Shown here: piece by piece, positions 21,961 to 58,459 of the stretch
How positions within the stretch are numbered: the stretch's first letter is position 1
Layout: the number at the start of each line of letters is the position of its first letter
Assembly (NCBI RefSeq): GCF_026626705.1
Contig: NZ_JAPNKC010000001.1
Span: forward strand, 12,277,001 to 12,341,000
Length of the DNA: 64,000 nt
DNA from: Pyxidicoccus sp. MSG2
GTDB lineage: Bacteria > Myxococcota > Myxococcia > Myxococcales > Myxococcaceae
Direction of reading: 5' to 3'
Program-made: the position numbers and the translations under genes
Notes under the pieces: generated by a model
The model's input: the letters and a program-made list of their open reading frames with translations, nothing else
Databases searched by the model: none
Told to the model about the DNA's origin: nothing

Positions 21961-22911
21961 CTACGCATGCAGCGGGGGCACCGAGTACGGCCCCGGCTGC
22001 TGGGGCGCTCGCTCGCCCGGGCCCACACCCGTGGGCTGCATGGCGGAGCGGGCCATCTCCTCGCCGTGCCGCATGCGCATGCGAATCATCTCCGGCGAGA
22101 AGTCGAGCGTGTTCCCCAGCGGCTTCGCCGGCTCGATGACGGTGATGCGGCAGTACCGGTAGGGCGTGCCGTCGGGACGGCGCAGCGACACGCCCTCGTC
22201 GTACGCCTGGCGGACGATGTCGTTGATGCGGATGAAGGTCTCCACGTCGTTGAGGAGGATCTCGTTGATGGTGATGTCGGTGAGGGCGCGCACGGCCACA
22301 TCGAGGATGTTGTTCGGGGCCTTCGCCGGCTCGACCTTCTGCGAGGAGCAGGAGATGACGACGATCTCCGTCGGGCCGTACTCCAGCGCGTCTCCCAGCG
22401 GCGTGACGTTGCGCAGGCCGCCGTCGACGAGGTAGGTGGAGCCGATGGGCTCCCAGATGACGGGCATGGTGGCGCTCTGCCACACGGCGTCCAGGAAGTC
22501 CTTCGCGTCACTGGAGACCAACTCGTACAGCCCGGACGTCAGCGACACGCGGCCCACGTGCGCGGGCACCACGTAGGGGCGACCCGTGGCGTTCTTCAGG
22601 ATGAAGTCCCGCAGCGGCGTGCCGTCGTACAGCCCCAGCTTGCGCAGCAGCCCGATGCGGATCGCGATGACGGCCCAGGGAAACCGCCGGTACACGTCCG
22701 ACTCGCGGATGTTGAGCCAGATGTCGTTCAGCTCCTTGTAGGCCTGCTGCGCCACCAGCGTGGCGTTGAGCGCGCCGACGGAGACGCCGAAGACGCGCTC
22801 CCACTGGAAGCCATGCACCTCGCGCAGGACGCGCTCGGCCCCCACCTGGAAGGCGCCCTTCGCGCCACCACCTGAGAGCACCAGCGTTGCGGGACGGTCC
22901 GTCATGGCCAT
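21961..22911 (-). CDS. Patatin-like phospholipase
   Basis: The product is 316 residues. The patatin catalytic elements are all present: the oxyanion hole SGGGAKGAF near residue 14, the nucleophile elbow GVSVG near 43, and the Asp of YLVDGGLRNVTP. The enzyme is expected to be a serine acyl hydrolase acting on phospholipids via a Ser-Asp dyad. There is no signal peptide, so it is cytoplasmic or exported by other means. The C-terminus is Pro/Gly-rich. The ATG at 22909-22911 has GGAGG six bases upstream; a second ATG two codons later is also possible. It is convergent with the lipoprotein gene, nine bases apart. Confidence 0.93.
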   Translation of the reverse strand: MAMTDRPATLVLSGGGAKGAFQVGAERVLREVHGFQWERVFGVSVGALNATLVAQQAYKELNDIWLNIRESDVYRRFPWAVIAIRIGLLRKLGLYDGTPLRDFILKNATGRPYVVPAHVGRVSLTSGLYELVSSDAKDFLDAVWQSATMPVIWEPIGSTYLVDGGLRNVTPLGDALEYGPTEIVVISCSSQKVEPAKAPNNILDVAVRALTDITINEILLNDVETFIRINDIVRQAYDEGVSLRRPDGTPYRYCRITVIEPAKPLGNTLDFSPEMIRMRMRHGEEMARSAMQPTGVGPGERAPQQPGPYSVPPLHA

Positions 22912-23089: not shown

Positions 23090-24742
23090 ATGCGCGACGA
23101 CGACGACCTTCACCAGCAGCGACACGGAGCACGGCCGGACGACCTCGCGTCCCTCCGGCGCCTGGATGCCGCGATGGTGCGCGCCGGCTTCCGGGTAGCG
23201 GGCAAGACGGTGCGCGAGTGGGTGGCCGACTTCGCCCGCGTGCGCGCGCGGTGGTTCGACAACGGCGAGGCCGTGAGCCACGTCATCGCAGCGGGCCTGG
23301 GCGCGGTGCCGGTGCTCGTGGACACCCTTCGGGCGAAGCGGCTGGACGTCCCTCCGAAAGCGGACTCGAGCGTCCGCGCGCAGTGCATCGAGGCTCTCGG
23401 GAGCATCGAGCCTCTGCCCACGTGCGCCATCCCCGCGCTCCTCGAGACACTGCGCACGCCGAGCGCCCGCGTGCGGTGGATGGTGCTCGCGGTGCTGGAG
23501 CGGATGCGCCCTCGGCCCACCGCCGCCGTCATCCGGGCCCTCCTCCCCTGCCTCCAGGACAAGCACGACGCGCAGTCGCGGAGCAGGGCCGCGCGGGTGC
23601 TGGCGCAAGTGGATGGAGCCCTCCCGGCGGAGGTCCGTCGCGCCGCGATGGCCCGCCTGATGGACTCCGACCGGAGCGTGCGCCGCCAGGCCCTCCAGGT
23701 GCTCGGCCGCTTCCCCGGAGACGCGGAGGTGCTCACCGCGCTGGAGGAGCAGGCCCTCCTGGATGACGTCAACCGCCTCGAGGCCCTGCGCATCCTCGCG
23801 GACCTGGAGCCTTCCCGAGCGTTCCCGCTGCTGCTGGACGTGGCGCGCAGGGCGGCGGAGGACCGGCCCGGGGACCAGCGCCTGGGTCAGATGGATGCCT
23901 TCGTCACGGTGCTGGCGCGGCGCGAGGAGGGCATGCGGGCGCTGCTCCTCATCGCCCGGCTGGGCGAGCGGGCCGTGTCCACGCTCCCGGAGCTCGTCGG
24001 ATTGCGTTCGCTCACACCGATGGCGACCTACGCGAACGCGGCCATCGACGACCTCGCGAGAGACGTGCTCCGCCGCCGCGCTCCACCCCTCGCGCCCGAG
24101 CGGTTCCACGGCGCGCACGTCACCGCCCTGCTCCGGGATGTGCCACCCCCACGGGAGCCCGACGAAACCCCGGGGAAGGCGCTGGCGCGCTGGGCGGAGG
24201 ACCTGCGGGAGCAGGGCCCCGACCTGATTGTCCGCGTCGCCCTGGCTGCCGCGCGACGGGTGCTGGGGCTGTGGGAATACCAGCAGCCGAACACCGAGGG
24301 AGTCCGGCGCGCCGTCATGGCCATGGACCGCTGGGTGTGCCAGCCCGCCGAGGCGCTCGTCCAGGACGCCCGGCTCGCGGGGTACACCGTCCCCAGTCAG
24401 TTCTCGTCGCCAGACGCGTTCTCCGCGGCCTGGTCGGTGACGTATGCCACGCGGTGCCTTCCCTCGGACGCGCCCGGGGATGCACAGCGGGAAGAGAACG
24501 AGGGCGACGCGCTCGGCGCATGTGTCAACGCCGCGTGCCGCGCCCTGAGCCGCCAGTCCGTCATCACCTGGGCCCTGGGCTCCAGCGAGGAGTCCCCCAC
24601 ACCGCTCCAACCCCGACAGGCGGCACAGGAGGTCCGGCGAGCCATCCTGGACGAGGTGCTCCCGTGGGCGCTGGGCACCTGGGACCCGGTCAAGGACGTC
24701 GTCCGGCTCGCGGACACACTGCGGGCCGGCGGCGCCCCCTGA
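23090..24742 (+). CDS. HEAT-repeat protein
   Basis: The product is about 550 residues from the ATG at 23090 (the frame continues upstream but those residues are low-complexity). Residues about 60-330 are tandem helical HEAT-type repeats: SVRAQCIEALGSIEPLPTCA, then RVRWMVLAVLERMRPRPTAA, SRAARVLAQVDGALPAEVRR, and SVRRQALQVLGRFPGDAEVL. Such arrays act as protein-binding scaffolds. The C-terminal 200 residues are helical and not recognised (AARRVLGLWEYQQPN onward). No signal peptide or membrane segment is present. It starts 178 bases from the divergent patatin gene. The function is unknown. Confidence 0.8.
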   Translation: MRDDDDLHQQRHGARPDDLASLRRLDAAMVRAGFRVAGKTVREWVADFARVRARWFDNGEAVSHVIAAGLGAVPVLVDTLRAKRLDVPPKADSSVRAQCIEALGSIEPLPTCAIPALLETLRTPSARVRWMVLAVLERMRPRPTAAVIRALLPCLQDKHDAQSRSRAARVLAQVDGALPAEVRRAAMARLMDSDRSVRRQALQVLGRFPGDAEVLTALEEQALLDDVNRLEALRILADLEPSRAFPLLLDVARRAAEDRPGDQRLGQMDAFVTVLARREEGMRALLLIARLGERAVSTLPELVGLRSLTPMATYANAAIDDLARDVLRRRAPPLAPERFHGAHVTALLRDVPPPREPDETPGKALARWAEDLREQGPDLIVRVALAAARRVLGLWEYQQPNTEGVRRAVMAMDRWVCQPAEALVQDARLAGYTVPSQFSSPDAFSAAWSVTYATRCLPSDAPGDAQREENEGDALGACVNAACRALSRQSVITWALGSSEESPTPLQPRQAAQEVRRAILDEVLPWALGTWDPVKDVVRLADTLRAGGAP

Positions 24743-24847: not shown

Positions 24848-25636
24848 ATGAAGTCCGCGCGTTCACCGCTGAGCATCCACCGCAACTCCCCCTGGGTCGT
24901 CGTGGGGGCCTTTTTCTTCTTCCTCTCCCTTTCGGCGGTCTACGCCTTCATCACGTTTCGGACTCCCTCGACGTGGCTCGAGGTCATCATCTCGGTAGGA
25001 GTGGCCGCCGTCGTGTGGGGAGGCTTCTTCGCCGTGCTCGTGCGCTTCCGTCAGGAGTGGGTGGAGTTGCACGCGGACGGCCTCGTCCACCACAAGCGGG
25101 ACGGCGAGGTGCGACTGCCCTGGGAGCAGGTCACCCAGTACAAGGTGGACCTGTTGGAGAATCCCCATGCGGGAGGCAAGGTGCTCCAGTCCATCTGGTC
25201 GCGGCTGGCGGAGAACGGCAAGCGTCGCTTCTCCGGGGGGCCTTCCCTGACGTCGCTGACGCTGTACGGCCAGGACGGAGACGCCATCACGTTGCAGCCC
25301 CGGCTGCTCGGCTTCTTCGTCCTCGCGGAGAAGTCGCTGGACCGCGTCGACGCGGTGCTCACCCTGCGCCATGACGCGCAGCTGCGCGACGGTCGGCCGG
25401 TGGCGTTCGGCGAGGAGGTCCTCCTCACGGCGCAGGGGCTGTCGGTCCGCGGGGAGCTCCTGCCGCTGGCGGAGATTGCGCAGGTGCACGCCATTGACGG
25501 GCAGGCGCGGGTGCAGCGGCGCAGCGGCGGCTGGGTGGACCTGGGCCGCATTCCCAATGCCTACGCGCTGATGTCCACGCTGCGCGCCCTGCGCACGAGC
25601 AACCGGACCAAGACGTCTCCGGGCCTGCGCGGGTAG
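24848..25636 (+). CDS. Membrane-anchored PH-like protein (DUF6585-like)
   Basis: The product is 262 residues. Two hydrophobic segments near the N-terminus (VVVGAFFFFLSLSAVYAFIT and EVIISVGVAAVVWGGFFAVL) form a hairpin in the membrane. The rest has strands alternating with turns as in bacterial PH domains (RLPWEQVTQYKVDLLENPHA, then SLTLYGQDGDAITLQPRLLG, LTAQGLSVRGELLPLAEIAQ). This layout resembles the myxobacterial family described as DUF6585, but I am not certain. No catalytic motif is visible. Bases 24743-24847 upstream hold no credible gene. Confidence 0.65.
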   Translation: MKSARSPLSIHRNSPWVVVGAFFFFLSLSAVYAFITFRTPSTWLEVIISVGVAAVVWGGFFAVLVRFRQEWVELHADGLVHHKRDGEVRLPWEQVTQYKVDLLENPHAGGKVLQSIWSRLAENGKRRFSGGPSLTSLTLYGQDGDAITLQPRLLGFFVLAEKSLDRVDAVLTLRHDAQLRDGRPVAFGEEVLLTAQGLSVRGELLPLAEIAQVHAIDGQARVQRRSGGWVDLGRIPNAYALMSTLRALRTSNRTKTSPGLRG

Positions 25637-25711: not shown

Positions 25712-26332
25712 ATGACGCGGACCCTCGGCGGTGTGGTGGCGGTGCTGCTCTCGTTGCTCGCGACACCCGTGTGGGCCCAGGACGCCGCGGCGGGCGGCGC
25801 TCCGGCGGACGTGGAGGCGACGCACAACGCGCTGCGCGCCCTCAAGCAGGACATGGAGGACGCGCTCAACACGCAGGACGTGGACCGGCTGGTGAAGCAC
25901 CTGACCCCGGACGTCGTCTTCACCACCATGAACAACGACGTGCGCGTGGGCAAGGACGCCATCCGCGCCTACTACGACGAGATGATGCGCGGGCCGAACC
26001 GCGTCGTGGAGAAGCTCACCGCGAAGTTCGAGGTGGATGACCTCACCCACCTCTACGGCAACACGGGCGTCGCCTGGGGCTCGTCGAAGGACCACTACGT
26101 GCTCACGGACGGCACGGACATCGTCATCGACAGCCGGTGGACGTGCACCCTGGTGCGCCAGGGCGACCAGTGGCTGATTTCCGCCTTCCACTACTCCACC
26201 AACGTGTTCGACAACCCGCTGCTCTCGAAGCTGAAGTACTACGGGGCCATCTTCATCTCCGTCGCGACGCTCGGTGCGCTCCTGGCGGGCTTCGTCATCG
26301 GCCGGACACGGCGCCCGAAGGCCACGGCTTGA
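25712..26332 (+). CDS. Exported SnoaL/NTF2-like protein with C-terminal membrane anchor
   Basis: The product is 206 residues with a signal peptide (MTRTLGGVVAVLLSLLATPV, then cleavage after WAQ). An NTF2-like cone domain follows: LKQDMEDALNTQDVDRLVKH, DVRVGKDAIRAYYDEMM, then GNTGVAWGSSKDHYVL and CTLVRQGDQWLISAFHYSTN. The C-terminus has one membrane helix, YYGAIFISVATLGALLAGFV, and a short basic tail, so the domain would face the periplasm. The ligand or enzyme activity is unknown. The ATG at 25712 has GGAGG five bases upstream. Its 3' end overlaps the 3' end of the convergent gene by 38 bp. Confidence 0.8.
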   Translation: MTRTLGGVVAVLLSLLATPVWAQDAAAGGAPADVEATHNALRALKQDMEDALNTQDVDRLVKHLTPDVVFTTMNNDVRVGKDAIRAYYDEMMRGPNRVVEKLTAKFEVDDLTHLYGNTGVAWGSSKDHYVLTDGTDIVIDSRWTCTLVRQGDQWLISAFHYSTNVFDNPLLSKLKYYGAIFISVATLGALLAGFVIGRTRRPKATA

Positions 26333-27812
26333 CCTCGGCCGGCTCGCGGAGGAACGGCAGGCGGCGTGGCAGCCGCCTCGCCCGGAAGCCCTCGATGGAG
26401 CGGTGAAACAGGCGCAATAGCGGCATCCCGGTGCGCCCTTCGAGGGCGGACAGCTCCTCGGCGGAGCGCTCCAACAACACACGGGCGCGGCCGTACTCCG
26501 CGACCACCCAGGCCCGCCCCGCGTTCGAGCCCAGCAGGGCGTCGTAATCACCCGGTTCCGCGCCCTCTCCCCTCACCTCTTCCGCGACCTCGGCCGGCAC
26601 GTTGTAGAGCCCCGCTTCCAGGTCCTCGCGCAGGTCGCGCAGGGTGGAGCACCAGCCGAACGCGTCGATGAGCGACGGCACGTCCGAGGCGCGCACGTCG
26701 GCGCTGGCCACATGCAGCATCAGGTCCACCGACAGCCGGAAGGTGTCCCGGTGCTGCGCGAGCAGCGCGTCGGCGGACAGCCACCGCCGCGCGCGCACCC
26801 GCTCCCGGTCCCTTCGCATGGTGCGCATGAGCGCGAAGACGTGCGCCCGCGCCTCCGGAGCCTCCAGGCTGTCGAGCAGCTCGCGCCCGAGCGTGGCCGC
26901 CGTCCCGGTGTCCTTCCCCTGCCCCGTCTCCAGCTCCGCGAGCAGCGCGTCCACCCAGTCGAGTGGCTCGCCCTTCACGGCCCGGTCTCCGTCCAGCACG
27001 TCGTCCACGAGCTGGAGGAAGCAGAATCCCACCCGGGCCACGCGGGCCTGACGCCGCCAGCGGCCCAGCGAGTAGCGATAGAGCACCAGACCGATCAGCG
27101 CATAGCGCAGGTGCCTGCGGGAGAAGCGGAACAGCTCGCGGGCACAGAGCGCCTCCACGCGGAGCGCGGCCAGGAAGTCTTCACGGCGGGCCCGGGGGGC
27201 GACGAACCGCCACGTGCCCCAGGCGAGCAGCGCGCCCGCCACCACGTCCACCACGTGGTGCTCGTGGATGAGCAGTGTCGACGCGGCGATGGCCGTGGCC
27301 CAGAGGCCCCAAAGCGCCCGCGCCCACCCGCCCGAGCGCTCCGCGTACGCCAGCGCGGCCGTGCACGCGAAGGCGACGTGGAGCGACGGCAGGTAGTTGC
27401 GCTCCAGGTTCAGGGTGTCGGCCACGAAGAAGATGTCGGCCCAACCGCCCTGCACGACGCGCGTGGGCCAGGCGACCTCCACGGGCAGCACCAGGTAGCC
27501 CACCGCGCCCACCACCGTCTCCGCGCAGAGCGCGAGCGCGAAGGGCACCATGTCCCTCCAGGTGCGGAAGACGAACAGGGACAGCAGCAGCAGCACGTCC
27601 ATGCTCACGTAGACCGCTGCCCACGCTGGGACGAACGGGATGTGCCGCTCGAAGGGCAGGTCCACGCGAAGGCCGCCGGAGTAGAAACCCGTCACCCAGC
27701 TCGCGCCGCCGTACACGGCGAGGAAGAACAGCGCGAAGCCGAGCGCGAGCGAGCCCGTGAGCAGCAACTCCCCGCGCCGGGGCAGACCGAACAACGCCGG
27801 ACGCCCGCTCAT
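26295..27812 (-). CDS. Fusion: PAP2-family phosphatase + class I isoprenoid-synthase-like domain
   Basis: The product is 505 residues. Residues 1-205 form a polytopic PAP2-type phosphatase: PSLH at 142-145 carries the second motif, and HHVVD (H185 with D189) the third. Residues about 215-490 are all-helical and look like the squalene/phytoene-synthase branch of class I isoprenoid synthases: first Asp-rich motif LQLVDDVLDGDR with D270-D274, second motif LRDLREDLEAGLYNVP at 391-406. In such enzymes both motifs hold Mg-diphosphate. The fusion suggests that a prenyl (di)phosphate is condensed or cyclised and the phosphate group removed at the membrane; this is inference. The start ATG at 27810-27812 overlaps the desaturase stop (ATGA). 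It is the third gene of the operon. Confidence 0.8.
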   Translation of the reverse strand: MSGRPALFGLPRRGELLLTGSLALGFALFFLAVYGGASWVTGFYSGGLRVDLPFERHIPFVPAWAAVYVSMDVLLLLSLFVFRTWRDMVPFALALCAETVVGAVGYLVLPVEVAWPTRVVQGGWADIFFVADTLNLERNYLPSLHVAFACTAALAYAERSGGWARALWGLWATAIAASTLLIHEHHVVDVVAGALLAWGTWRFVAPRARREDFLAALRVEALCARELFRFSRRHLRYALIGLVLYRYSLGRWRRQARVARVGFCFLQLVDDVLDGDRAVKGEPLDWVDALLAELETGQGKDTGTAATLGRELLDSLEAPEARAHVFALMRTMRRDRERVRARRWLSADALLAQHRDTFRLSVDLMLHVASADVRASDVPSLIDAFGWCSTLRDLREDLEAGLYNVPAEVAEEVRGEGAEPGDYDALLGSNAGRAWVVAEYGRARVLLERSAEELSALEGRTGMPLLRLFHRSIEGFRARRLPRRLPFLREPAEVKPWPSGAVSGR

Positions 27813-28798
27813 CGCGCCTCCACGGTGAGGGGCAGTGGCTCCTCGCGCGGCTGCGTACCGAACGATGCGGGCCCGCTCGTCGCATCCTCCACGGTGGCGG
27901 GCAGCGGTCGGGGCCCACGCCACATGGACAACCAGACGCGCAGGAACGACGGCCGGGGAGCGCTCGAATCCACGAAGCGGCCCAGGTGGAGCCAGGGCAC
28001 GTGCGGGTGTCGGTGATGCGCGCGGTGGTAGTGGTAGTTGAGGAACAGCCAGCGCACGGGCGCGGCCACGCGCAGATCCCACGCCCCGTCGCGCACGTGT
28101 AGCGGAGACCACGCATGGTCCGCGTACTGCAACCCGCTCCAGTTGACGGCGAAGGCCGCGTAGCACAGCGCCTGGCCCGTCACGGTCAGGTCCAGTGCAG
28201 AGACGAGCCCGGCCTGCACCGCCACTGCCAGCAACACCTCCCACCGGATGGCCGCCCCCGGGGCGACCTCCAGCCGGCCCAGGTACGCATCCGCGCCCGT
28301 CTGCTCCCCATAGTGCGTACCCGTGCCGCGCAGTCGGTGCAGCAACCCGGGGATGAGGGCGAAGGCCACCGCGCCCACCGGCACGAAGAGCCAGTAGAGG
28401 CCACTGAGGATGGAGTACCACTGCGCGCGCTTGAGGAAGCGGTTGTCCCCGGGCCGGAAGTAGTCGAACTGCTCCAGCCGCGTCCGGTTGTGGCGGTGGT
28501 GGTTGAGGTGGAAGGCGCGCTGCATGGTGAAGGACGTGGGGAACAGCGTCGCCGCCACGCGCCCGAGCCCATCATTCACGCGGCGCGACGGGTGCAGCAC
28601 CCCATGCGTCGCCTCGTGCAGCAGCGAGAAGACGGTGTTGTTCACGAACGAGAACACCCCCGCCGCCATGAGCCGCACGGCCCATGCGTCCGCATGAGAG
28701 GCCAGCCAGAGACACCCGGCGCACGCGGTCATCGCGGAGGCCAGGAGCACGACATTGAGGGTGGCCGGGATGGGCGTGTCCCTACCCTCGCTCGTCAT
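27809..28798 (-). CDS. Fatty-acid-desaturase-family membrane diiron enzyme
   Basis: The product is 329 residues and polytopic. It carries the three His boxes of membrane desaturases/hydroxylases: HEATH at 61-65, HLNHHRH at 97-103 and HYHRAHH at 256-262, with H228 (ADHAW) as a possible extra ligand. Members desaturate, hydroxylate or ketolate acyl chains or carotenoids. The box spelling alone does not decide the substrate. The start overlaps the end of the Rieske gene by 17 bp and the stop overlaps the start of the PAP2-synthase gene, so all three are translationally coupled. The Rieske protein could act as its redox partner or as an independent oxygenase. Confidence 0.88.
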   Translation of the reverse strand: MTSEGRDTPIPATLNVVLLASAMTACAGCLWLASHADAWAVRLMAAGVFSFVNNTVFSLLHEATHGVLHPSRRVNDGLGRVAATLFPTSFTMQRAFHLNHHRHNRTRLEQFDYFRPGDNRFLKRAQWYSILSGLYWLFVPVGAVAFALIPGLLHRLRGTGTHYGEQTGADAYLGRLEVAPGAAIRWEVLLAVAVQAGLVSALDLTVTGQALCYAAFAVNWSGLQYADHAWSPLHVRDGAWDLRVAAPVRWLFLNYHYHRAHHRHPHVPWLHLGRFVDSSAPRPSFLRVWLSMWRGPRPLPATVEDATSGPASFGTQPREEPLPLTVEAR

Positions 28799-29753
28799 CG
28801 CGGTCCTCGGGCAGGCTGGCGGTGAAGGCCATCAACTGGCGCAGGATCGGGTCCTCCGCGGCGCCGGCCGGGTTGAAGCGCATGCCGTGGAGCACGGACA
28901 GGTCCCTGCGCAGGAACGACGTGAAGAGCCACCGGGACACCGCGAGCGACAGCCGCTCCAGGCCCGGGATGCGGCCCCGGCGCGCGGCGAAGGCTAGCCG
29001 CACCGCCATGCCCGCCTCGGTCTTCCGGATGCCAGCGACGAGGGCGCTCCGCGTCCGGCCGAGGTCGCTCTCCACGGAGAGCAGCGTTCCGCCATGCACG
29101 GTGATGGTGACGCGGATGTGGTTGCCGGACAGCGTCTTCATCAGCCAGTCACTGGCCCCGGTGCCGGTGACGCGCGAGGTGTAGCGCAGGCGCAACGTGA
29201 ACGGGTCCGGCCGCTCCACCACGGGCGCGTCCCGCAGTTCGCGGTGGTGCACGGTGCGCAGGTGCTCGATGTCGAACGAGTTGGCCACCAGCGGCAGCCA
29301 GTCACAGCGCACGGTGACTTCGCGTCCGGTGCGCCAGGACAGGTCCGCGGCACCCACCTCCGGCGGAGGACAGAGGACCACGGGTCCGTTGAAGACGAGG
29401 ATGGCGCCGTAGCGCTCCACCACGGGGAACGGCCGCTGTCCGGGCCTGCCGCCCACGTCCGCCTGGCAGGCGCCGCTGCCGTCGAAGCGCCAGTGGTGCA
29501 GCGGGCAGCGCAGACAGTCACCGACGACGGTGCCGCCCGCGAGGTGCGTGCCCATGTGCGCGCAGTGCGCGGACAGCGCGTGCGCGCCGCCGCCCTGTCC
29601 CCGGAAGAGCACCAGCTCCCTTCCGCCGAGGCTGAAGCCCATCACCTGTCCGCGCCGGAGCGACTCGGACGGGCACACGAGGTGCCACGCCCGGAGCCGG
29701 CCCGGCTCGGGTTGACGGACCGGGTCCGCCCACGCCACGACATTCACCGCCAT
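28782..29753 (-). CDS. Rieske [2Fe-2S] oxygenase (KshA/aromatic-ring-hydroxylase-like)
   Basis: The product is 323 residues. The Rieske cluster motif is C64-x-H66 (CAHMGTHL) and C83-x2-H86 (CPLHHW). A mononuclear iron site follows in the catalytic domain as NSFDIEHLRTVHHREL (H164 and H169, with D161). The layout matches terminal oxygenase components of the Rieske non-heme iron family that act on steroids, fatty or terpenoid rings, such as KshA or cholesterol 7-desaturase. No ferredoxin or reductase gene is nearby, so electrons must come from elsewhere. It is the first gene of the three-gene operon. The short gap to the next gene upstream (29754-29819) should contain the promoter. The substrate is unknown. 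Confidence 0.88.
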   Translation of the reverse strand: MAVNVVAWADPVRQPEPGRLRAWHLVCPSESLRRGQVMGFSLGGRELVLFRGQGGGAHALSAHCAHMGTHLAGGTVVGDCLRCPLHHWRFDGSGACQADVGGRPGQRPFPVVERYGAILVFNGPVVLCPPPEVGAADLSWRTGREVTVRCDWLPLVANSFDIEHLRTVHHRELRDAPVVERPDPFTLRLRYTSRVTGTGASDWLMKTLSGNHIRVTITVHGGTLLSVESDLGRTRSALVAGIRKTEAGMAVRLAFAARRGRIPGLERLSLAVSRWLFTSFLRRDLSVLHGMRFNPAGAAEDPILRQLMAFTASLPEDRDDERG

Positions 29754-35948: not shown

Positions 35949-38900
35949 TTGGGAGTGCTCGACCTGCTCGGCCGCTGGCCCGTATTCCGGCAGTTGCGGA
36001 AGGGAGACGCCACCGCGCTCGGGGACACGGCGATGAGCGAGCGCAGTCGTACGCTCGAGCCGCGCACCGTGCGGGCCGACCGCGTCGTGAAGTCCGTCTG
36101 CCCCTACTGCGCGGTGGGCTGTGGGCAGGACGTGTACGTGAAGGACGGCCGCATCCTCGACATCGAGGGCGACTCGGACTCGCCCATCTCCCGTGGCCGC
36201 CTGTGCCCCAAGGGCGCGGCCACCTTCCAGCTCGTCACCGGCAACCACCGCGTCCGCGACGTGCTCTACCGCCGGCCCGGCGGCACCGAGTGGGAGAAGC
36301 TCCCGCTGGAGCAGGCCATGGACATGGTGGCCGAGCGCGTGAAGCGCACGCGCGACGCCACGTGGGAGGCCAAAGACGTCAACGGCCTGGACGTGAACCG
36401 CACCCTGGGCATCGCCCACCTGGGCGGGGCCACGCTGGACAACGAGGAGAACTACCTCATCAAGAAGCTCTTCACCGCGCTGGGCATCGTGCAGGTGGAG
36501 AACCAGGCTCGAATATGACACTCGTCCACGGTGCCCGGTCTGGGCATCTCGTTCGGTCGAGGCGGCGCGACGACGTTCCAGCAGGACCTGCGGAACGCGG
36601 ACTGCATCGTCATCCAGGGCTCCAACATGGCCGAGTGTCACCCCGTGGGCTTCCAGTGGGTGATGGAGGCGAAGGAGCGCGGGGCGACCCTCATCCACGT
36701 GGACCCGCGCTTCACGCGCACCAGCGCCATGGCGGACCTGCACGTGCCCATTCGCGCGGGCTCGGACATCGCCTTCCTGGGCGGGCTCATCCACTACGTG
36801 CTGGAGCACGAGCGCCACTTCAAGGAGTACGTCCTCCACTACACCAACGCCGCGAACATCATCCGTGAGGGCTTCCAGGACACGGAGGACCTGGACGGGT
36901 TCTTCAGCGGCTACCAGTCGGAGGACGGCAAGTACGACATCGCCACCTGGCAGTACGAGGGCGTGGGCGGCACCGTGCCCGCGGGAGGCCACAAGGAGCT
37001 CTACGCCGAGCCCGGCGCCGGCAAGGGCGGTGACGAGAGCGGCTCCGCCCGGTTCGATGCAAAGAAGGACCCGACGCTCCAACACCCGCGCTGTGTCTTC
37101 CAGCTCCTGAAGCGCCACTTCCGGCGCTACACGCCGGCCATCGTTGCGAAGGTGTGCGGCGTGCCGGAGGAGCAGTTCCTGAAGGTGGCGGAGGCGCTGT
37201 GCGCCAACTCGGGCCGAGAGCGCACCACCGCGTTCTGCTACGCGGTGGGGTGGACGCAGCACACGGTGGGCGTGCAGTACATCCGCACCGCGTCCATCCT
37301 CCAGCTCCTGCTGGGCAACATCGGCCGGCCCGGCGGCGGAATCATGGCGCTGCGCGGCCACGCGTCCATCCAGGGCTCGACGGACGTCCCCACCCTCTAC
37401 AACCTGCTGCCCGGCTACATGCCCATGCCGCACGCAAAGCAGGGCCTGGACCTGGACGAGTACCTGGAGGACCACTCGGCCAGCACCGGCTGGTGGAGCA
37501 ACCTGCCGAAGTACGCCGTGTCCCTCCTCAAGGCCTGGTTCGGCGACGCCGCGACGAAGGAGAACCACTTCCTCTTCGGCCACCTGCCCCGGCTCACGGG
37601 GAACCACTCACATATGCAGACGGTGGCGGACATGGCGGACGGCCGCGTGAAGGGCTACTTCGTCATGGGAGAGAACCCCGCCGTGGGCTCCTCCCACGGC
37701 TCACTCCAGCGCAAGGGCCTGCGCGAATTGGACTGGCTCGTGGTGCGGGACTTCACCCTCATCGAGACGGCCGAGTTCTGGCGCCGCGCACCCGAAATCC
37801 AGCGCGGCGACGTGAAGATGGAGGACATCCGCACCGAGGTCTTCTTCTTCCCCGCCGCCGCGCACACGGAGAAGGAGGGCACCTTCACCAACACGCAGCG
37901 CCTGCTCCAGTGGCGAGACAAGGCGGTGGAGCCGCCCGGCGACGCGCGCAGCGAGCTGCACTTCGTCTACCACCTGGGCCGCAGGCTGAAGACGCTCTAC
38001 GCCGGCTCGAAGGAGCGCAAGGACCAGCCGCTTCACGACGTGACGTGGGACTACCCCACGCGAGGCCGGGACGCGGAGCCGAGCGCCGAGGCGGTGCTCC
38101 AGGAAATCAACGGCTACACCGTGGCCGACCGGAAGCCGGTGAAGGGCTTCTCCGAATTGAAGGACGACGGCAGCACGGCCTCGGGCTGTTGGATCTACTC
38201 GGGCTGCTACGCGGACGGCGTGAACCAGACGGCGCGCCGCAAGCCCGGGCGCGAGCAGACGTGGGTGGCGCCCGAGTGGGGCTGGGCGTGGCCGGCCAAC
38301 CGACGCATGCTCTACAACCGCGCGTCGGCGGATCCGGACGGCAAGCCGTGGAGCGAGCGGAAGAAGTACGTCTGGTGGGACGCGGAGCAGCAGCGGTGGA
38401 CCGGCGAGGATGTGCCGGACTTCATCGCGGACCGGCCGCCCGACTACCGCCCCCCGGAGCACGCGCGGGGCGTGGATGCGCTCGGTGGGACGGACCCGTT
38501 CATCATGCAGGTGGACGGCAAGGCGTGGCTCTTCGCGCCCAGCGGAATGATGGACGGTCCGCTGCCCACGCACTACGAGCCGCAGGAGTCCCCGGTGGAG
38601 AACGCGCTCTACGGGCAGCAGTGCAACCCGGCGCGGCTGGAGTGGCGTCGCCGGGACGTGCCGCTGCACCGTGCGTGGGCAGACCCGCGCTACCCCTTCG
38701 TCATCACCACCTACCGCGTGACAGAGCACCACACGGCGGGAGGCATGAGCCGCTGGCTGTCCTGGCTGAGCGAGCTGCAGCCCGAGCAGTTCTGTGAGGT
38801 GTCCCCGGAGCTCGCCGCGGAGCGCGGCCTGACGAACGGCGGCTGGGCCACGGTGCGCACCGCGCGCGGAGACCTGGAGTGCCGGGTGCTCGTCACCGAG

Positions 38901-39221
38901 CGCCTGCGCCCGCTGAAGCTCAACGGGACGTGGGTGCACCAGCTTGGCCTGCCCTACCACTGGGGCGTGACGGGGCGCATCCGCGCGAGCGGGGCCAATG
39001 ACCTGCTGCCCATCGTGGCGGACCCCAACGTGGAGATTCAGGAGTCCAAGGCCTTCACCGGCGACATCGTCGCGGGCCGGCACGCCACCGGCGAGCGTTC
39101 CGCCACGAGTGCCGTGACGCCGGCGCTGCCGGCGGGAACGCCCGAAGCGCGGCGCGACAGCCTCCGCGTTTCCGAGCACGCGCACGACACGCAGCAGGAG
39201 AAGCTGGAACAGGAGCGGTAG
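35949..39221 (+). CDS. fdhA: Selenocysteine formate dehydrogenase, catalytic subunit
   Basis: The gene encodes 1090 residues if UGA at 36516-36518 is read as selenocysteine 190. The flank reads VENQARI-U-HSSTVPGLGISFGRGGAT, exactly the context of Sec in FdnG/FdoG-type formate dehydrogenases, and a SECIS hairpin follows. A [4Fe-4S] site is formed by Cys 51, 54, 58 and 86 (CPYCAVGC onward), and the molybdopterin domains (GFQWVMEAKERGATLIHVDP, GRPGGGIMALRGH) are intact. No twin-arginine signal is seen, so the subunit is probably cytoplasmic, unlike FdnG. The start used is TTG at 35949 with GGGAGG six bases upstream; an ATG at 36033 is the alternative. It heads the fdh operon. Confidence 0.93.
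36516..36561 (+). promoter_or_regulatory. Selenocysteine UGA with SECIS hairpin
   Basis: TGA at 36516-36518 is followed 18 bases later by the loop GGTCT (36537-36541), flanked by GTGCCC (36531-36536) and GGGCAT (36542-36547), which pair with one G-U. CTCG at 36521-36524 can pair with CGAG at 36558-36561 to lengthen the stem. In E. coli fdhF the SelB-binding loop is also GGUCU, and it lies 18 bases after the UGA. The reading frame continues unbroken past the codon. Confidence 0.9.
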
Positions 39222-54955: not shown

Positions 54956-57900
54956 ATGGCCCTCCCTCTCCTGAAGCCCATCCAGAAGGTGCTGTGCGCC
55001 AACCGCGGTGAGATTGCCATCCGCGTGTTCCGCGCGTGCAACGAGCTGGGCATCCGCACCGTCGCCATCTACAGCGACGAGGACCGCACCCACGAGCACC
55101 GCCACAAGGCGGACGAGGCGTACCTCGTGGGCCGCGGCAAGCGCCCGGTGGAGGCGTACCTCGGCATCGACGAGATTCTCGACGTGGCGCAGAAGGCCGG
55201 CGTGGACGCCATCCACCCGGGCTACGGCTTCCTGTCGGAGAACGCCGACTTCGCCGAGGCGTGCGAGCGCCGGGGCATCCGCTTCATCGGCCCGCGCTCG
55301 CCGGTGGTGCGGACCATGGGTGACAAGGTGGCCGCCAAGACGCTCGCCCAGAAGGTGGGCGTGCCGGTGGTGCCCGGTGTCACCCTGGAGGGCAACGACG
55401 CCCGGGTGCTGGAGCAGGCCCGCGCCTTCTTCACCCAGCACGGCGGCCCCGTCCTGGTAAAGGCCGCGCATGGCGGCGGCGGCCGCGGCATGCGCGTGGT
55501 GCGCGAGGAGAAGGAGTTGGAGGCGGCGCTTGCCTCCGCGCGCTCGGAGGCGAAGAGCGCCTTCGGCTCGTCGGCGGTGTTCCTGGAGAAGTTCCTGGAG
55601 CGCGTGCGCCACATCGAGGTGCAGCTGCTCGGCGATTTGCACGGCAACCTCGTGCACCTGCACGAGCGTGACTGCTCGGTGCAGCGCCGCCACCAGAAGG
55701 TCATCGAGATTGCCCCCGCGCCCAACCTGTCCCCGGTGCTGCGCACCGCCATCTGCGACGCGGCGGTGCGGCTGGCGCGCGAGGCGGGCTACTCCAGCGC
55801 GGGCACGGCCGAGTTCCTCGTCTCCGGCGACACGTACTACTTCATCGAGTGCAACGCGCGGCTCCAGGTGGAGCACACCGTCACCGAGCAGGTGACGGGA
55901 GTGGACCTGGTGCAGAGCCAGATTCGCATCGCGGAAGGCTACCGGCTGGACTCGCCGGAGGTGGGCATCCCCTCGCAGGAGGCCATCGTCCCGCGCGGCT
56001 ACGCGGTGCAGCTGCGCGTCACCACCGAGGACCCTGCGAACAACTTCATGCCGGACGCGGGCGTCATCACCGCGTGGCGCGCGGCCCATGGCTTCGGCAT
56101 CCGGCTGGACGGCTCCAACGGCTACACGCAGGCTCACATCTCGCCGTACTACGACTCCATGCTGGTGAAGGTCATCGCCTACGCGCCCACGTTCCAGGGC
56201 GCGGTGATGAAGGGCCAGCGCGCGCTGCGCGAGTTCCGCATCCGCGGCGTGAAGACGAACCTGCCCTTCCTGGAGAACGTGCTGCACCACCCCGCCTTCC
56301 AGAAGGGCGAGACGTACACGCGCTTCATCGACGAGACGCCGGAGCTCTTCCAGCTCGCGCCCCGGCGGGACAGGGCCAGCAAGCTGCTGCACTACCTGGG
56401 TGACGTCATCGTCAACGGCCACCCCACCATCAAGAAGCACCAGCGACTCAAGCCCACGCAGTTCCTGGAGCCGCGCCTGCCGGTGACGCCGTCCGAGCCC
56501 GTGCCGCGCGGCACCGCGCAGATCCTCGCGGAGAAGGGCCCCCGGGGCCTGGCCGAGTGGGTGCTCGCCCAGAAGCGCGTGCTGCTCACCGACACCACCA
56601 TGCGCGACGCACACCAGTCGCTGCTGGCCACGCGCATGCGCACCCGCGACGTGCTGCGCGTGGCGCCGGCCACCGCGCACCTGGCATCGGACCTCTTCAG
56701 CCTGGAGAGCTGGGGCGGTGCGACGTTCGACACCGCCTACCGCTTCCTCAACGAGGACCCGTGGGCCCGCCTGCGCGCGCTCAAGGCCGCGGCGCCAAAT
56801 CTCCTGCTCCAGATGCTCCTGCGCGGCGCCAACGCCGTGGGCTACACGAGCTACCCGGACAACGTGGTGGAGGCCTTCATCGACGAGGCGGCCGAGGCGG
56901 GCGTGGACGTCTTCCGCATCTTCGACAGCCTCAACGACCTGGGCAGCATGGAGGTGTCCATCCGCCGCGTGCTCAAGACGGGAAAGGTGGCGGAGGTGGC
57001 CATCTGCTACACGGGCGACGTCGCCAACCCCAAGCGCAAGAAGTACACGCTGGACTACTACGCGGACCTGGCGAAGCGCATCGAGGACTCGGGCGCCCAC
57101 TTCCTGTGCATCAAGGACATGGCGGGCCTCCTGCGCCCGCGCGCCGCGGCCATGCTGATGGACAAGCTGCGCGAGGTGACGCGCCTGCCCATCCACCTGC
57201 ACATGCACGACACCGCGGGCAACGGCATCGCCAGCTACCTGGAGGCCATCGAGCACGGCGTGCACATCGTCGACGTGGCACTTGGCAGCATGGCGGGGCT
57301 CACCAGCCAGCCCAGCCTGAACGCGCTGGTCAGCGCGCTGCGTGGCCACCCGCGCGAGACGGGGCTGGCCAACGCGCGCCTGCAGCCGCTGGCCAACTAC
57401 TGGGAGGACGTGCGCGAGTACTACGCCCCCTTCGAGAGCGGCCTCAAGAGCACGACGAGCGAGGTCTACTACCACGAGATTCCGGGCGGTCAGTACTCCA
57501 ACCTCCGGCCCCAGGTGGCGGAGATGGGGCTGCTGGGCCGGTGGAACGACGTGAAGGACGCCTTCGCGCTCGTCAACGCGCTGGTGGGGGACATCCCCAA
57601 GGTGACGCCGTCATCGAAGATGGTGGGCGACTTCGCCATCTTCCTCCTGAAGAACGACCTGGCCGTGCGCGGCGCGGACATGGGTGACAGCGCGGCGCTC
57701 ACCCGCGCGAAGCTCATCGCCGAGGCGCCGCGCCTGGACTTCCCCTCCAGCGTGGTGGGCTACTTCCGCGGCGAATTGGGCCAGCCGCCCAATGGCTTCC
57801 CGGAAGATTTGCGCGCCGCGGTGCTCAAGGGCCTGCCGCGCGTGGAGGGCCGGCCGTCCTCCAACATGCCGCCGCTGGACCTGGGCAAGCTCCAGCAGGA

Positions 57901-58459
57901 GCTGTCCCAGAAGGCGGGCCACCCGCTCACCCGCGTGGATGCCATCTCCGCCGCGCTCTACCCGCGCGTCATGGCGGGCTTCCTGGAGGACCAGGCGAAG
58001 TACGAGGACGTGTCCATCCTCGACACGCCCAACTACTTCTACGGCATGGAGGTGGGTCAGGAAATCTGGGTGGACATCGAGCCGGGCAAGACGCTGGTCA
58101 TCAGCCTGTCGGCCGTGGGCGAGCCAGACGATGACGGCTGCCGCACCGTCTACTTCGCGCTCAACGGGCACAACCGCTCGGTGCTGGTGAGGGACCGCAG
58201 CCTCGCGGCGAAGGTGGAGGCCCGCCGGCAGGCGGACCGCTCCAACCCGAACCACGTGGCGGCGAGCATGCCGGGCACCGTCATCGCCCTGCACGTCAAG
58301 CCGGGCGCGCGCGTGGAGGCCGGCGCGCCGCTCGTCACGCTGGAGGCGATGAAGATGGAGACGGTGGTCCGCGCCCCTCGCGCCGGCACCGTGGCGGAGG
58401 TGGTGCCCTCGCTCAAGGGCGCGGTGCAGGGCGGTGATTTGCTCGCGGTGTTGCAGTAG
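54956..58459 (+). CDS. pyc: Pyruvate carboxylase
   Basis: The product is 1167 residues, the full length of a single-chain pyruvate carboxylase, which makes oxaloacetate from pyruvate and bicarbonate. Order: biotin carboxylase with ATP-grasp (VLCANRGEIAIRVFRACNEL, then AAHGGGGRGMRVV and ECNARLQVEHTVTEQVTGVD), carboxyltransferase (DTTMRDAHQSLLATRMRTRD, then DIFSLESWGGATFDTAYRF-like and HMHDTAGNGIASYLEAIEHG), and a biotinyl domain with EAMKMETVV, the biotinylated Lys at 1133. All catalytic regions are intact. A GGGAG lies well upstream of the ATG. It follows the MFS gene by 152 bases and probably has its own promoter. Confidence 0.96.
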   Translation: MALPLLKPIQKVLCANRGEIAIRVFRACNELGIRTVAIYSDEDRTHEHRHKADEAYLVGRGKRPVEAYLGIDEILDVAQKAGVDAIHPGYGFLSENADFAEACERRGIRFIGPRSPVVRTMGDKVAAKTLAQKVGVPVVPGVTLEGNDARVLEQARAFFTQHGGPVLVKAAHGGGGRGMRVVREEKELEAALASARSEAKSAFGSSAVFLEKFLERVRHIEVQLLGDLHGNLVHLHERDCSVQRRHQKVIEIAPAPNLSPVLRTAICDAAVRLAREAGYSSAGTAEFLVSGDTYYFIECNARLQVEHTVTEQVTGVDLVQSQIRIAEGYRLDSPEVGIPSQEAIVPRGYAVQLRVTTEDPANNFMPDAGVITAWRAAHGFGIRLDGSNGYTQAHISPYYDSMLVKVIAYAPTFQGAVMKGQRALREFRIRGVKTNLPFLENVLHHPAFQKGETYTRFIDETPELFQLAPRRDRASKLLHYLGDVIVNGHPTIKKHQRLKPTQFLEPRLPVTPSEPVPRGTAQILAEKGPRGLAEWVLAQKRVLLTDTTMRDAHQSLLATRMRTRDVLRVAPATAHLASDLFSLESWGGATFDTAYRFLNEDPWARLRALKAAAPNLLLQMLLRGANAVGYTSYPDNVVEAFIDEAAEAGVDVFRIFDSLNDLGSMEVSIRRVLKTGKVAEVAICYTGDVANPKRKKYTLDYYADLAKRIEDSGAHFLCIKDMAGLLRPRAAAMLMDKLREVTRLPIHLHMHDTAGNGIASYLEAIEHGVHIVDVALGSMAGLTSQPSLNALVSALRGHPRETGLANARLQPLANYWEDVREYYAPFESGLKSTTSEVYYHEIPGGQYSNLRPQVAEMGLLGRWNDVKDAFALVNALVGDIPKVTPSSKMVGDFAIFLLKNDLAVRGADMGDSAALTRAKLIAEAPRLDFPSSVVGYFRGELGQPPNGFPEDLRAAVLKGLPRVEGRPSSNMPPLDLGKLQQELSQKAGHPLTRVDAISAALYPRVMAGFLEDQAKYEDVSILDTPNYFYGMEVGQEIWVDIEPGKTLVISLSAVGEPDDDGCRTVYFALNGHNRSVLVRDRSLAAKVEARRQADRSNPNHVAASMPGTVIALHVKPGARVEAGAPLVTLEAMKMETVVRAPRAGTVAEVVPSLKGAVQGGDLLAVLQ

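What the first reader, a model, noticed from the sequence alone, without database searches (positions are those of the whole stretch)
26295..29753. Three-gene operon: Rieske oxygenase, desaturase and PAP2/isoprenoid-synthase fusion
The three genes overlap by 17 and 4 bp and read in one direction, so they almost certainly act in one pathway. Seen directly: a Rieske cluster plus mononuclear iron site, three His boxes of a membrane diiron enzyme, and a protein with a PAP2 phosphatase fused to a class I isoprenoid-synthase-like domain with both Asp-rich motifs. From family knowledge, the set could build and oxidise a terpenoid or prenylated lipid at the membrane. I know of no described pathway with this exact set. 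The absence of a ferredoxin, reductase or cyclase gene nearby suggests that it uses shared redox partners.
Basis: partly seen in the sequence, partly recalled or inferred. Interest (0 to 1): 0.82.

Follow-up and report, generated by a model that had tools for sequence, protein, structure and literature searches.

The report
Myxobacterial lipid-tailoring operon with fusion enzyme
Four neighbouring genes that are almost always inherited together in some myxobacteria look like the modifying half of an undescribed route to an unusual membrane or signal lipid, and one of them joins two lipid enzymes that probably work on opposite sides of the cell membrane.

Summary
In detail: a Rieske oxygenase, a membrane diiron desaturase/hydroxylase and a PAP2 fusion protein, overlapping by 17 and 4 bp. 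The fusion's C-terminal half is a divergent squalene/phytoene-synthase-fold domain. Pfam PF00494 misses it, but profile comparison (E 3e-6) and fold (HpnC, Z 17.6) support it, and both Asp-rich motifs are invariant. Its PAP2 half is closest to ceramide head-group transferases, only narrowly ahead of LpxE.

Fusion, Rieske and DUF4440 occur in exactly the same 36 of 96 family genomes (desaturase 35).

The module also depends on a second locus with a GH3 amide-synthetase-type gene and a second Rieske gene: the latter is in all 36 module genomes but only 17 of 60 others. Relatives of both loci sit together in one Burkholderia cluster, and PAP2, DUF4440, desaturase and GH3 together on a Citrobacter plasmid. 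I therefore read the operon as the tailoring arm of an undescribed GH3-dependent amide-lipid pathway, with the synthase-like domain as a Myxococcaceae addition. Activities and product are inferred.

The parts
28782..29753 (-). Rieske-type oxygenase, 323 aa, first gene of the operon (R1)
   Evidence: Pfam Rieske 71.7 bits; nearest solved relatives KshA, SxtDIOX/SxtT and DdmC; ligand residues invariant in 16 of 16 rows
27809..28798 (-). membrane diiron desaturase/hydroxylase, 329 aa (DES1)
   Evidence: Pfam FA_desaturase 88.3 bits; best NCBIfam match is the carotenoid ketolase CrtW, far below its cut-off; three His boxes invariant in 16 of 16 rows
26295..27812 (-). fusion protein, 505 aa: PAP2 membrane domain + squalene/phytoene-synthase-like domain
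27177..27812 (-). PAP2 membrane domain of the fusion (aa 1-212)
   Evidence: PAP2_3 and PAP2 just above cut-off; own model matches SMSr Z 14.0, IPC synthase 13.6, LpxE 12.9, Aur1 12.9, PgpB 12.0
27378..27389 (-). PAP2 motif PSLH (aa 142-145)
   Evidence: P142, S143 and H145 invariant also in the stand-alone paralogues, 17 of 17 rows
27246..27266 (-). PAP2 motif HEHHVVD (aa 183-189) with H185 and D189
   Evidence: H185 and D189 invariant in 17 of 17 rows
26298..27176 (-). squalene/phytoene-synthase-fold domain (aa 213-505)
   Evidence: hhalign E 3.3e-6 against 15 myxobacterial PF00494 members; fold match HpnC Z 17.6, LvqB4/CqsB4 17.5/17.4
26991..27005 (-). Asp-rich motif 1, DDVLD (aa 270-274)
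   Evidence: invariant in 19 of 19 rows; aligned with PF00494 members
26622..26639 (-). Asp-rich motif 2, RDLRED (aa 392-397)
   Evidence: R392, D393 and D397 invariant in 19 of 19 rows; aligned with PF00494 members
25712..26332 (+). convergent DUF4440/NTF2-like gene, 206 aa; signal-like N-terminus and C-terminal membrane segment by eye; overlaps the fusion gene by 38 bp
   Evidence: Pfam DUF4440 44.3 bits, SnoaL_2 37.3; present in the same 36 of 96 genomes as the fusion; homologue next to PAP2 on a Citrobacter plasmid

Best explanation
The operon plus the convergent DUF4440 gene is a four-gene tailoring module of a larger, undescribed lipid pathway. A second locus on the same chromosome would assemble an amide-linked lipid: a GH3-type ATP-dependent amide synthetase, a GNAT-like protein, a second Rieske enzyme R2 and an RnfD/FG-GAP protein, with a second desaturase beside them in this genome. 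In the module, the diiron enzyme DES1 (membrane) and the Rieske enzyme R1 (cytosol) oxidise or desaturate the lipid. The PAP2 domain would act on its phosphorylated head or phosphate at the periplasmic face, as ceramide head-group transferases and lipid phosphatases do. The anchored NTF2-like protein would act on, or bind, the product on that same side. The synthase-fold domain hangs on the cytosolic side and keeps the metal-binding Asp motifs, so it probably binds a prenyl diphosphate and adds a prenyl or terpenoid part, as the squalene-synthase-like carbazole prenyltransferases do. Shown here: gene order, domain identity, conserved motif residues, co-occurrence, and cross-phylum clustering. 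Inferred: topology, every reaction, the substrate and the product.
For: Operon order is conserved across genera. Orthologues of fusion, R1 and DUF4440 occur in the identical 36 of 96 family genomes and DES1 in 35 of those 36 (set check). R2 of the second locus (E <= 1e-100) is present in 36 of 36 module genomes against 17 of 60 others. GH3 matches (E <= 1e-10) occur in all 36. DES1-family genes, orthologue or paralogue: R2 in 42 of 43 genomes with and 11 of 53 without. In Burkholderia arboris one cluster holds relatives of R2 (41%), DES2 (40%), GH3 (36%), DES1 (35%), the double-GNAT-like protein (34%) and a PAP2-type/desaturase fusion recognised by weak similarity. A Citrobacter plasmid holds PAP2 (36%), DUF4440 (30%), DES1 (41%), GH3 and two GNAT-like genes. 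Trees group the Citrobacter genes with the module copies (local support 0.98 for DES1, 0.82 for PAP2). A relative, G011, has a site that lacks the whole block. The PAP2 model is closest to SMSr and IPC synthase. The synthase-fold domain is closest to HpnC and the LvqB4/CqsB4 prenyltransferases, with CrtM tied.
Against: No activity or product is known. Co-occurrence is not phylogenetically independent: in the own genus one clade of 11 genomes lacks both loci, and only a few further losses separate them. The two loci are about 6.3 Mb apart in this genome. Seventeen genomes have R2 without the module. The synthase-fold domain was not seen in the Citrobacter and Burkholderia clusters, so its role cannot be read from them. 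PAP2 similarity to SMSr is only 1.1 Z above LpxE, and no Foldseek E-value was below 0.001. The GH3 protein is far below the OlsH cut-off (28 against 620 bits), so 'amide lipid' rests on the superfamily. The 257-aa and double GNAT-like proteins of this genome have no Pfam match; the label is by eye and by weak similarity to a Citrobacter protein just above the Pfam GNAT cut-off. The Burkholderia PAP2 part is weakly placed, and I ran no Pfam scan of that protein.
Confidence: 0.48

Rival explanations
1. Free-standing terpenoid pathway: the synthase-fold domain condenses or cyclises a prenyl diphosphate, PAP2 removes phosphate, and DES1 and R1 oxidise the terpenoid.
For: Synthase fold with both Asp motifs. 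Phosphatase-terpene synthase fusions exist: bacterial drimenol synthases, a HAD domain fused to a beta domain (PMC9128629, abstract). The desaturase scores best with carotenoid enzymes; the Rieske enzyme is nearest KshA among solved structures and SdmA, a sterol enzyme, in NCBIfam.
Against: PAP2 and DES1 occur as a pair, even fused, without the synthase-fold domain, so their shared substrate need not be a terpenoid. Six positions invariant or nearly so in 15 PF00494 members are changed in 19 of 19 rows. By inferred topology PAP2 and the synthase domain face opposite sides. It does not explain the dependence on the second locus.
Confidence: 0.25
2. Remodelling of ordinary or ceramide membrane lipids: DES1 and R1 modify acyl or sphingoid chains, PAP2 exchanges the head group, and the synthase-fold domain is a non-catalytic lipid-binding part.
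For: PAP2 model nearest SMSr and IPC synthase. Accessory residues of squalene/phytoene synthases are lost: Y to F263, R to Q267, N to S389, R to L402.
Against: All four motif Asp residues (D270, D274, D393, D397) and R392 are kept in 19 of 19 rows. In G122 the synthase-fold domain survives without PAP2 and DES1, stop-free, with dN/dS 0.33-0.50 against 0.24-0.50 among its relatives. No sphingolipid genes were searched for.
Confidence: 0.17
3. Carotenoid tailoring: DES1 is a ketolase/hydroxylase of myxobacterial carotenoids.
For: Best NCBIfam match CrtW, E 8e-7.
Against: 28.6 bits against a cut-off of 350. PF00494 genes of any type occur in 91 of 96 family genomes, so they do not follow the module.
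Confidence: 0.04

Closest known systems
Squalene/phytoene synthase family (PF00494: HpnC, CrtM, CrtB) and SQS-like carbazole prenyltransferases CqsB4/LvqB4
   Same: Fold over residues 212-488 (HpnC Z 17.6, LvqB4 17.5, CqsB4 17.4, CrtM 16.9: ties), two Asp-rich motifs in the same order.
   Different: Below PF00494 detection; fused to PAP2; six family-invariant or nearly invariant positions changed; no terpene cyclase or carotenoid gene seen beside it.
Ceramide head-group transferases of the PAP2 superfamily (SMSr, IPC synthase/Aur1) and LpxE
   Same: Fold of residues 12-212 (Z 14.0, 13.6/12.9, 12.9) and conserved PSxH / H...D motifs.
   Different: Sequence only just reaches the Pfam cut-off; C-terminal synthase-fold fusion; substrate unknown.
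OlsH-type bacterial GH3 amide synthetases (ornithine-lipid pathway of planctomycetes)
   Same: GH3 superfamily; the only NCBIfam match of the second-locus GH3 at E <= 0.01 is OlsH. The paper's abstract states ATP-dependent N-acyl ornithine formation (PMC12493201).
   Different: 28 against a cut-off of 620 bits. 'myxo', 'Rieske', 'desaturase' and 'PAP2' occur nowhere in the paper's main text. No OlsI-type hydrolase was looked for here.
Bifunctional drimenol synthases (HAD phosphatase fused to a terpene synthase domain)
   Same: A phosphatase-type domain fused to a terpene-synthase-type domain (PMC9128629, abstract).
   Different: HAD-like domain instead of a membrane PAP2; beta domain instead of an SQS-like fold.
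KshA / SdmA Rieske monooxygenases
   Same: Nearest solved relative of R1 is KshA, E 1e-24 by profile; best NCBIfam match is SdmA.
   Different: The matches cover mainly the N-terminal Rieske part; SdmA cut-off 600 bits against 44; no reductase gene recognised beside it.

Membership tests
Squalene/phytoene synthase (PF00494) | Pfam model above its curated cut-off | tested here: not met
   no PF00494 match at E <= 1; own genome matches only at C1:3900232
Squalene/phytoene synthase (PF00494) | SQS/PSY fold | tested here: met
   best PDB matches HpnC, LvqB4/CqsB4 and CrtM, Z 17.6-15.8; human SQS 15.8-14.9 overlaps general class I synthases (up to 15.5); Foldseek best E 0.0056
Squalene/phytoene synthase (PF00494) | two Asp-rich metal-binding motifs | tested here: met
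   19 of 19 rows, aligned to family motifs
Squalene/phytoene synthase (PF00494) | other residues invariant or nearly so in 15 members (Y26, R30, Q172, N175, R188, Y190 of P0004) | tested here: not met
   all six differ: F263, Q267, G386 (A in one row), S389, L402, N404; P192 is kept as P406; Y137 and G146 were not mapped
Squalene/phytoene synthase (PF00494) | turnover of prenyl diphosphates | not testable with these tools
   needs enzymology
PAP2 superfamily | Pfam cut-off and catalytic His/His-Asp | tested here: met
   the best 33 rows are PAP2-type or haloperoxidase structures
SMS/IPC synthase branch of PAP2 | closer to these than to lipid phosphatases | tested here: inconclusive
   Z 14.0/13.6 against LpxE 12.9 and PgpB 12.0; differences of about 1 are near ties
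Rieske non-haem iron oxygenase | 2Fe-2S ligands and 2-His-1-carboxylate site | tested here: met
   16 of 16 rows; assignment of H164, H169 and D301 as iron ligands rests on recalled family knowledge
Membrane FA_desaturase (PF00487) | Pfam cut-off and three His boxes | tested here: met
OlsH lyso-ornithine lipid synthetase (second-locus GH3) | NCBIfam equivalog cut-off | tested here: not met
   28.2 against 620 bits
DUF4440/NTF2-like | Pfam cut-off | tested here: met
   44.3 against 25.2 bits

The most novel reading that the evidence does not exclude
A new class of bacterial lipid: an amide-linked, ceramide-like lipid assembled by a GH3 synthetase. In Myxococcaceae it is also prenylated or terpenoid-linked by a two-faced membrane enzyme whose cytosolic half is a squalene-synthase-like prenyltransferase and whose periplasmic half is a head-group transferase. 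Reduced or altered versions of the pathway occur in Burkholderia and Citrobacter, and a GH3 core with GNAT-like genes in Acinetobacter.
Probability: 0.2. Interest if true: 0.85.

Novelty: new variant of a known kind. Interest (0 to 1): 0.62.

Why it matters
Each part belongs to a known enzyme superfamily, but the set is new to me. Ten full-text searches of the held library listed no paper that I could see describing it. Seven of these lists were cut to 10-20 rows of longer results, and the library holds open-licence PubMed Central papers only.

If the reading is right, it points to an unexplored amide-lipid pathway shared across phyla. It also gives a concrete list of genes at two loci whose deletion should remove the same compound in a tractable laboratory organism, Myxococcus xanthus. 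The fusion would be a rare case of a squalene-synthase-like domain tied to a membrane head-group enzyme.

Tried and rejected
Sequence search of the fusion against solved structures: nothing meaningful. DES1 profile against solved structures: 0 matches.

Weak PAP2 matches elsewhere in the order (G030, G031, G036, G040) were looked at. In G031, G036 and G040 the ORF there is another PAP2 protein without a recognisable synthase domain; in G030 my gene caller listed no ORF at the match. Upstream SRPBCC gene as a module member: rejected, as it occurs in only 6 of 96 genomes, one of them without the module. Defence role: 0 PADLOC matches for the four proteins. Structured RNA in window 20000-45000: 0 Rfam matches at gathering threshold. 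The Rhodococcus plasmid Rieske hit has a PDR/VanB reductase, not the module, and the Streptomyces GH3 hit lies beside polyketide genes.

Carotenoid role: considered and set low. The whole-collection pattern scan of 84,980 genomes returned only 7 loci, six titled as myxobacteria and one titled Comamonas that matches G024, a same-genus genome, in contig length and position; the scan finds close relatives only. The co-occurrence searches scored at most 12 candidates per genome.

The second fold search lists only what Foldseek ranked first; families absent from it are not excluded. In one search I read the wrong frame of the formate dehydrogenase; one search is the right one. The Fisher values ignore relatedness and are not used as probabilities. 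In one search the trees shown are FastTree; an IQ-TREE run for DES1 finished but I did not print its tree. Gene calls in unannotated loci are from my own script.
Full report
1. OBSERVATION. The window is G000:C1:12277001-12341000 of a 13.3 Mb genome, myxobacterial by its relatives. The three minus-strand ORFs have the stated ends and overlaps. Pfam supports Rieske, FA_desaturase and PAP2_3/PAP2. PF00494 does not match the C-terminal half and finds only an unlinked gene in the genome (C1:3900232).

2. THE C-TERMINAL DOMAIN. A profile of 14 orthologous C-terminal domains (A2) aligned to 15 PF00494 members of the phylum (A6) with probability 88%, E 3.3e-6, 188 columns, both Asp motifs in register. 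The same profile weakly finds the genome's own PF00494 gene (E 0.0024). The AlphaFold model has pLDDT mostly 77-95 over this part. Its best solved matches are HpnC (Z 17.6, rmsd 3.8, 251 aligned), the SQS-like carbazole prenyltransferases LvqB4 and CqsB4 (17.5, 17.4) and CrtM (16.9), which are ties; then human squalene synthase (up to 15.8) and general class I terpenoid synthases (about 14-15.5). Foldseek's own E-values were weak (best 0.0056). D270, D274, R392, D393 and D397 are invariant in 19 of 19 rows. Six positions invariant or nearly so in A6 are replaced: F263, Q267, G386 (A in one row), S389, L402, N404. I take this as a likely metal- and diphosphate-binding domain with altered substrate use. 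NzsG and CqsB4 show that phytoene-synthase-like enzymes can prenylate a carbazole (PMC7466098, passages read).

3. THE PAP2 DOMAIN. Folded alone (mean pLDDT 81.6), its nearest solved structures are human SMSr with ceramide (Z 14.0), IPC synthase (13.6), LpxE (12.9), Aur1 (12.9) and PgpB (12.0); in Foldseek SMSr, Aur1 and IPC synthase also come first, with E 0.002-0.004. The order among these is too close to name a subfamily. P142, S143, H145, H185 and D189 are invariant, also in stand-alone paralogues (17 of 17 rows). With six long helices, motifs between helices 3/4 and 5/6, and basic residues at both ends, the active site should be periplasmic and the synthase-fold domain cytosolic. This is inference from the model and from recalled PAP2 topology.

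4. A FOURTH GENE. The convergent gene 25712-26332(+) encodes a DUF4440/SnoaL-type (NTF2-like) protein with, by eye, a signal-like N-terminus and a C-terminal membrane segment. I read 19 loci (L032 and L096 are the same region, so 18 distinct). The gene lies beside the operon in 18 of 19: directly convergent in 14 (in one of these, L093, the operon is truncated), and one gene away in four of the five loci of genus g20 (L089, L090, L091, L101). The fifth, L092, is a short contig without it; that genome has it on another contig. In that script the gene caller did not list the Rieske gene of L091; one search finds it there.

5. CO-OCCURRENCE. Fusion: 36 of 195 phylum genomes, in 4 of 90 genera, all one family. 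DUF4440: 36 of 96 family genomes at E <= 1e-20. R1 orthologues (E < 1e-170): 36; ten further genomes have distant matches at E <= 1e-30. DES1 orthologues: 35; nine further genomes have only paralogues. The sets of fusion, R1 and DUF4440 are identical. The exception for DES1 is G122, where an in-frame deletion removed nearly all of DES1 and the PAP2 half and left R1 plus the synthase-fold domain. That remnant is open, keeps the motifs and has dN/dS 0.33-0.50, against 0.24-0.50 among relatives. G122 keeps a separate PAP2-desaturase pair elsewhere. Control: the upstream neighbour SRPBCC is in 6 of 96 genomes. One of these, G011, lacks the module. There SRPBCC is followed by a 155-aa ORF, a 517-aa ORF that by eye resembles the window gene at 23090, and a 74% homologue of the window gene at 21961, with operon, DUF4440 and the gene at 24848 absent.

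6. PARALOGOUS PAIR. The own genome also has a stand-alone PAP2 followed by a desaturase (33% and 39% identical to the module's) at C1:6054201-6055719. In G157 the two are fused.

7. THE SECOND LOCUS. At about C1:6027000-6036000 lie a second desaturase (DES2), a 206-aa protein, a 943-aa protein (RnfD-like domain, FG-GAP repeats, UnbV_ASPIC), a 257-aa protein that I call GNAT-like (no Pfam match), a GH3 protein and a second Rieske enzyme R2. The run 943-aa protein, GNAT-like, GH3, R2 is found in six further genomes read (L131, L133, L134, L135, L137; L143). DES2 was listed in three of these six (L133, L134, L135). In one more, L136, GH3 and a GNAT-like gene are apart and R2 is on another contig. 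The only NCBIfam match of GH3 at E <= 0.01 is OlsH, far below cut-off. R2 (E <= 1e-100) occurs in 53 of 96 genomes: 36 of 36 with the module and 17 of 60 without. GH3 matches (E <= 1e-10) occur in all 36. For any DES1-family gene (E <= 1e-10), R2 is present in 42 of 43 genomes with and 11 of 53 without. These are not independent: on a tree of one conserved gene (window 54956-58459; 27 genus members; midpoint root), one clade of 11 lacks both loci, G011 lacks both, and G019 keeps the second locus but not the module. The consistent point is one-way: the module was never seen without R2.

8. OTHER PHYLA. A Citrobacter portucalensis plasmid carries GH3, five genes annotated radical SAM (three scanned; B12-binding above cut-off in two), two GNAT-like genes (one just above the Pfam cut-off), PAP2, a DUF4440 homologue annotated 'hypothetical' (E 7e-23 to the window protein), and a desaturase 41% identical to DES1. 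By megablast the cluster is in no other plasmid record and in no E. coli genome of the collections. Burkholderia arboris carries, in one cluster, relatives of DES1, DES2, GH3, R2, the double-GNAT-like protein and a fused PAP2-type/desaturase protein; its PAP2 half is identified only by weak similarity. An Acinetobacter record has a GNAT-like gene, GH3, a gene for what looks like an outer-membrane channel, and a double-GNAT-like gene. In the trees, Citrobacter groups with the module copies rather than with the paralogous pair (local support 0.98 for DES1, 0.82 for PAP2).

9. READING. PAP2, desaturase, DUF4440 and GH3 recur together. The Rieske enzyme R1 and the synthase-fold domain look like additions in Myxococcaceae; a 36% relative of R1 does occur in another GH3-containing cluster (L103 in G139). 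The bacterial GH3 enzyme OlsH makes N-acyl ornithine (PMC12493201, abstract, passages and section 8). I therefore prefer an amide-linked lipid that is oxidised by DES1 and R1 and processed at its head by PAP2, over a free-standing terpenoid pathway. The confidence is moderate because no product is known.

10. LITERATURE. Ten searches of the held library listed no paper that I could see describing this set; several lists were capped (for example 20 of 1,064). Of the four papers opened, I saw one passage of PMC6997564, abstract, passages and section 8 of PMC12493201, the abstract and outline of PMC9128629 and passages of PMC7466098. Of the rest I saw listings only.

Noticed in passing
window 35955-39221: Formate dehydrogenase-like alpha chain (label by eye) interrupted by an in-frame TGA in the context RIUHSS, typical of selenocysteine (recalled, not from a call); the stretch 36450-36608 is open when TGA is read as Sec.
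   Followed up: partly
L129:11137-13968 (G000:C1 about 6029136-6031967): 943-aa protein joining an NQR2/RnfD-like membrane domain to FG-GAP repeats and UnbV_ASPIC, placed before GNAT-like, GH3 and R2; possible electron carrier for the Rieske enzymes.
   Followed up: partly
L093:6634-7545 (G122): In-frame deletion joins the start of the desaturase gene to the synthase-fold domain, leaving a stand-alone, apparently intact domain.
   Followed up: yes
L103 (G139:C209:12500-26051): Another cluster with GH3, a GNAT-like gene, a ferredoxin-like protein (by eye) and two Rieske enzymes, the second 36% identical to R1 over 300 aa.
   Followed up: partly
L036:8780-10672 and L018:1198-2907: Long PAP2 proteins (630 and 569 aa) in another family of the order, with further membrane regions around the PAP2 part by eye.
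   Followed up: no
   Followed up: no
L138 (NZ_CP104448.1): Record called an Acinetobacter plasmid is 4.09 Mb, the size of a chromosome; it holds GNAT-like, GH3, a channel-like protein and a double-GNAT-like gene beside what look by eye like efflux genes.
   Followed up: no
PMC6997564, table 2: A PAP2 family protein of the studied myxobacterium is listed with 14-fold decreased transcription on methyl jasmonate (one passage); whether it is this fusion was not checked.
   Followed up: no
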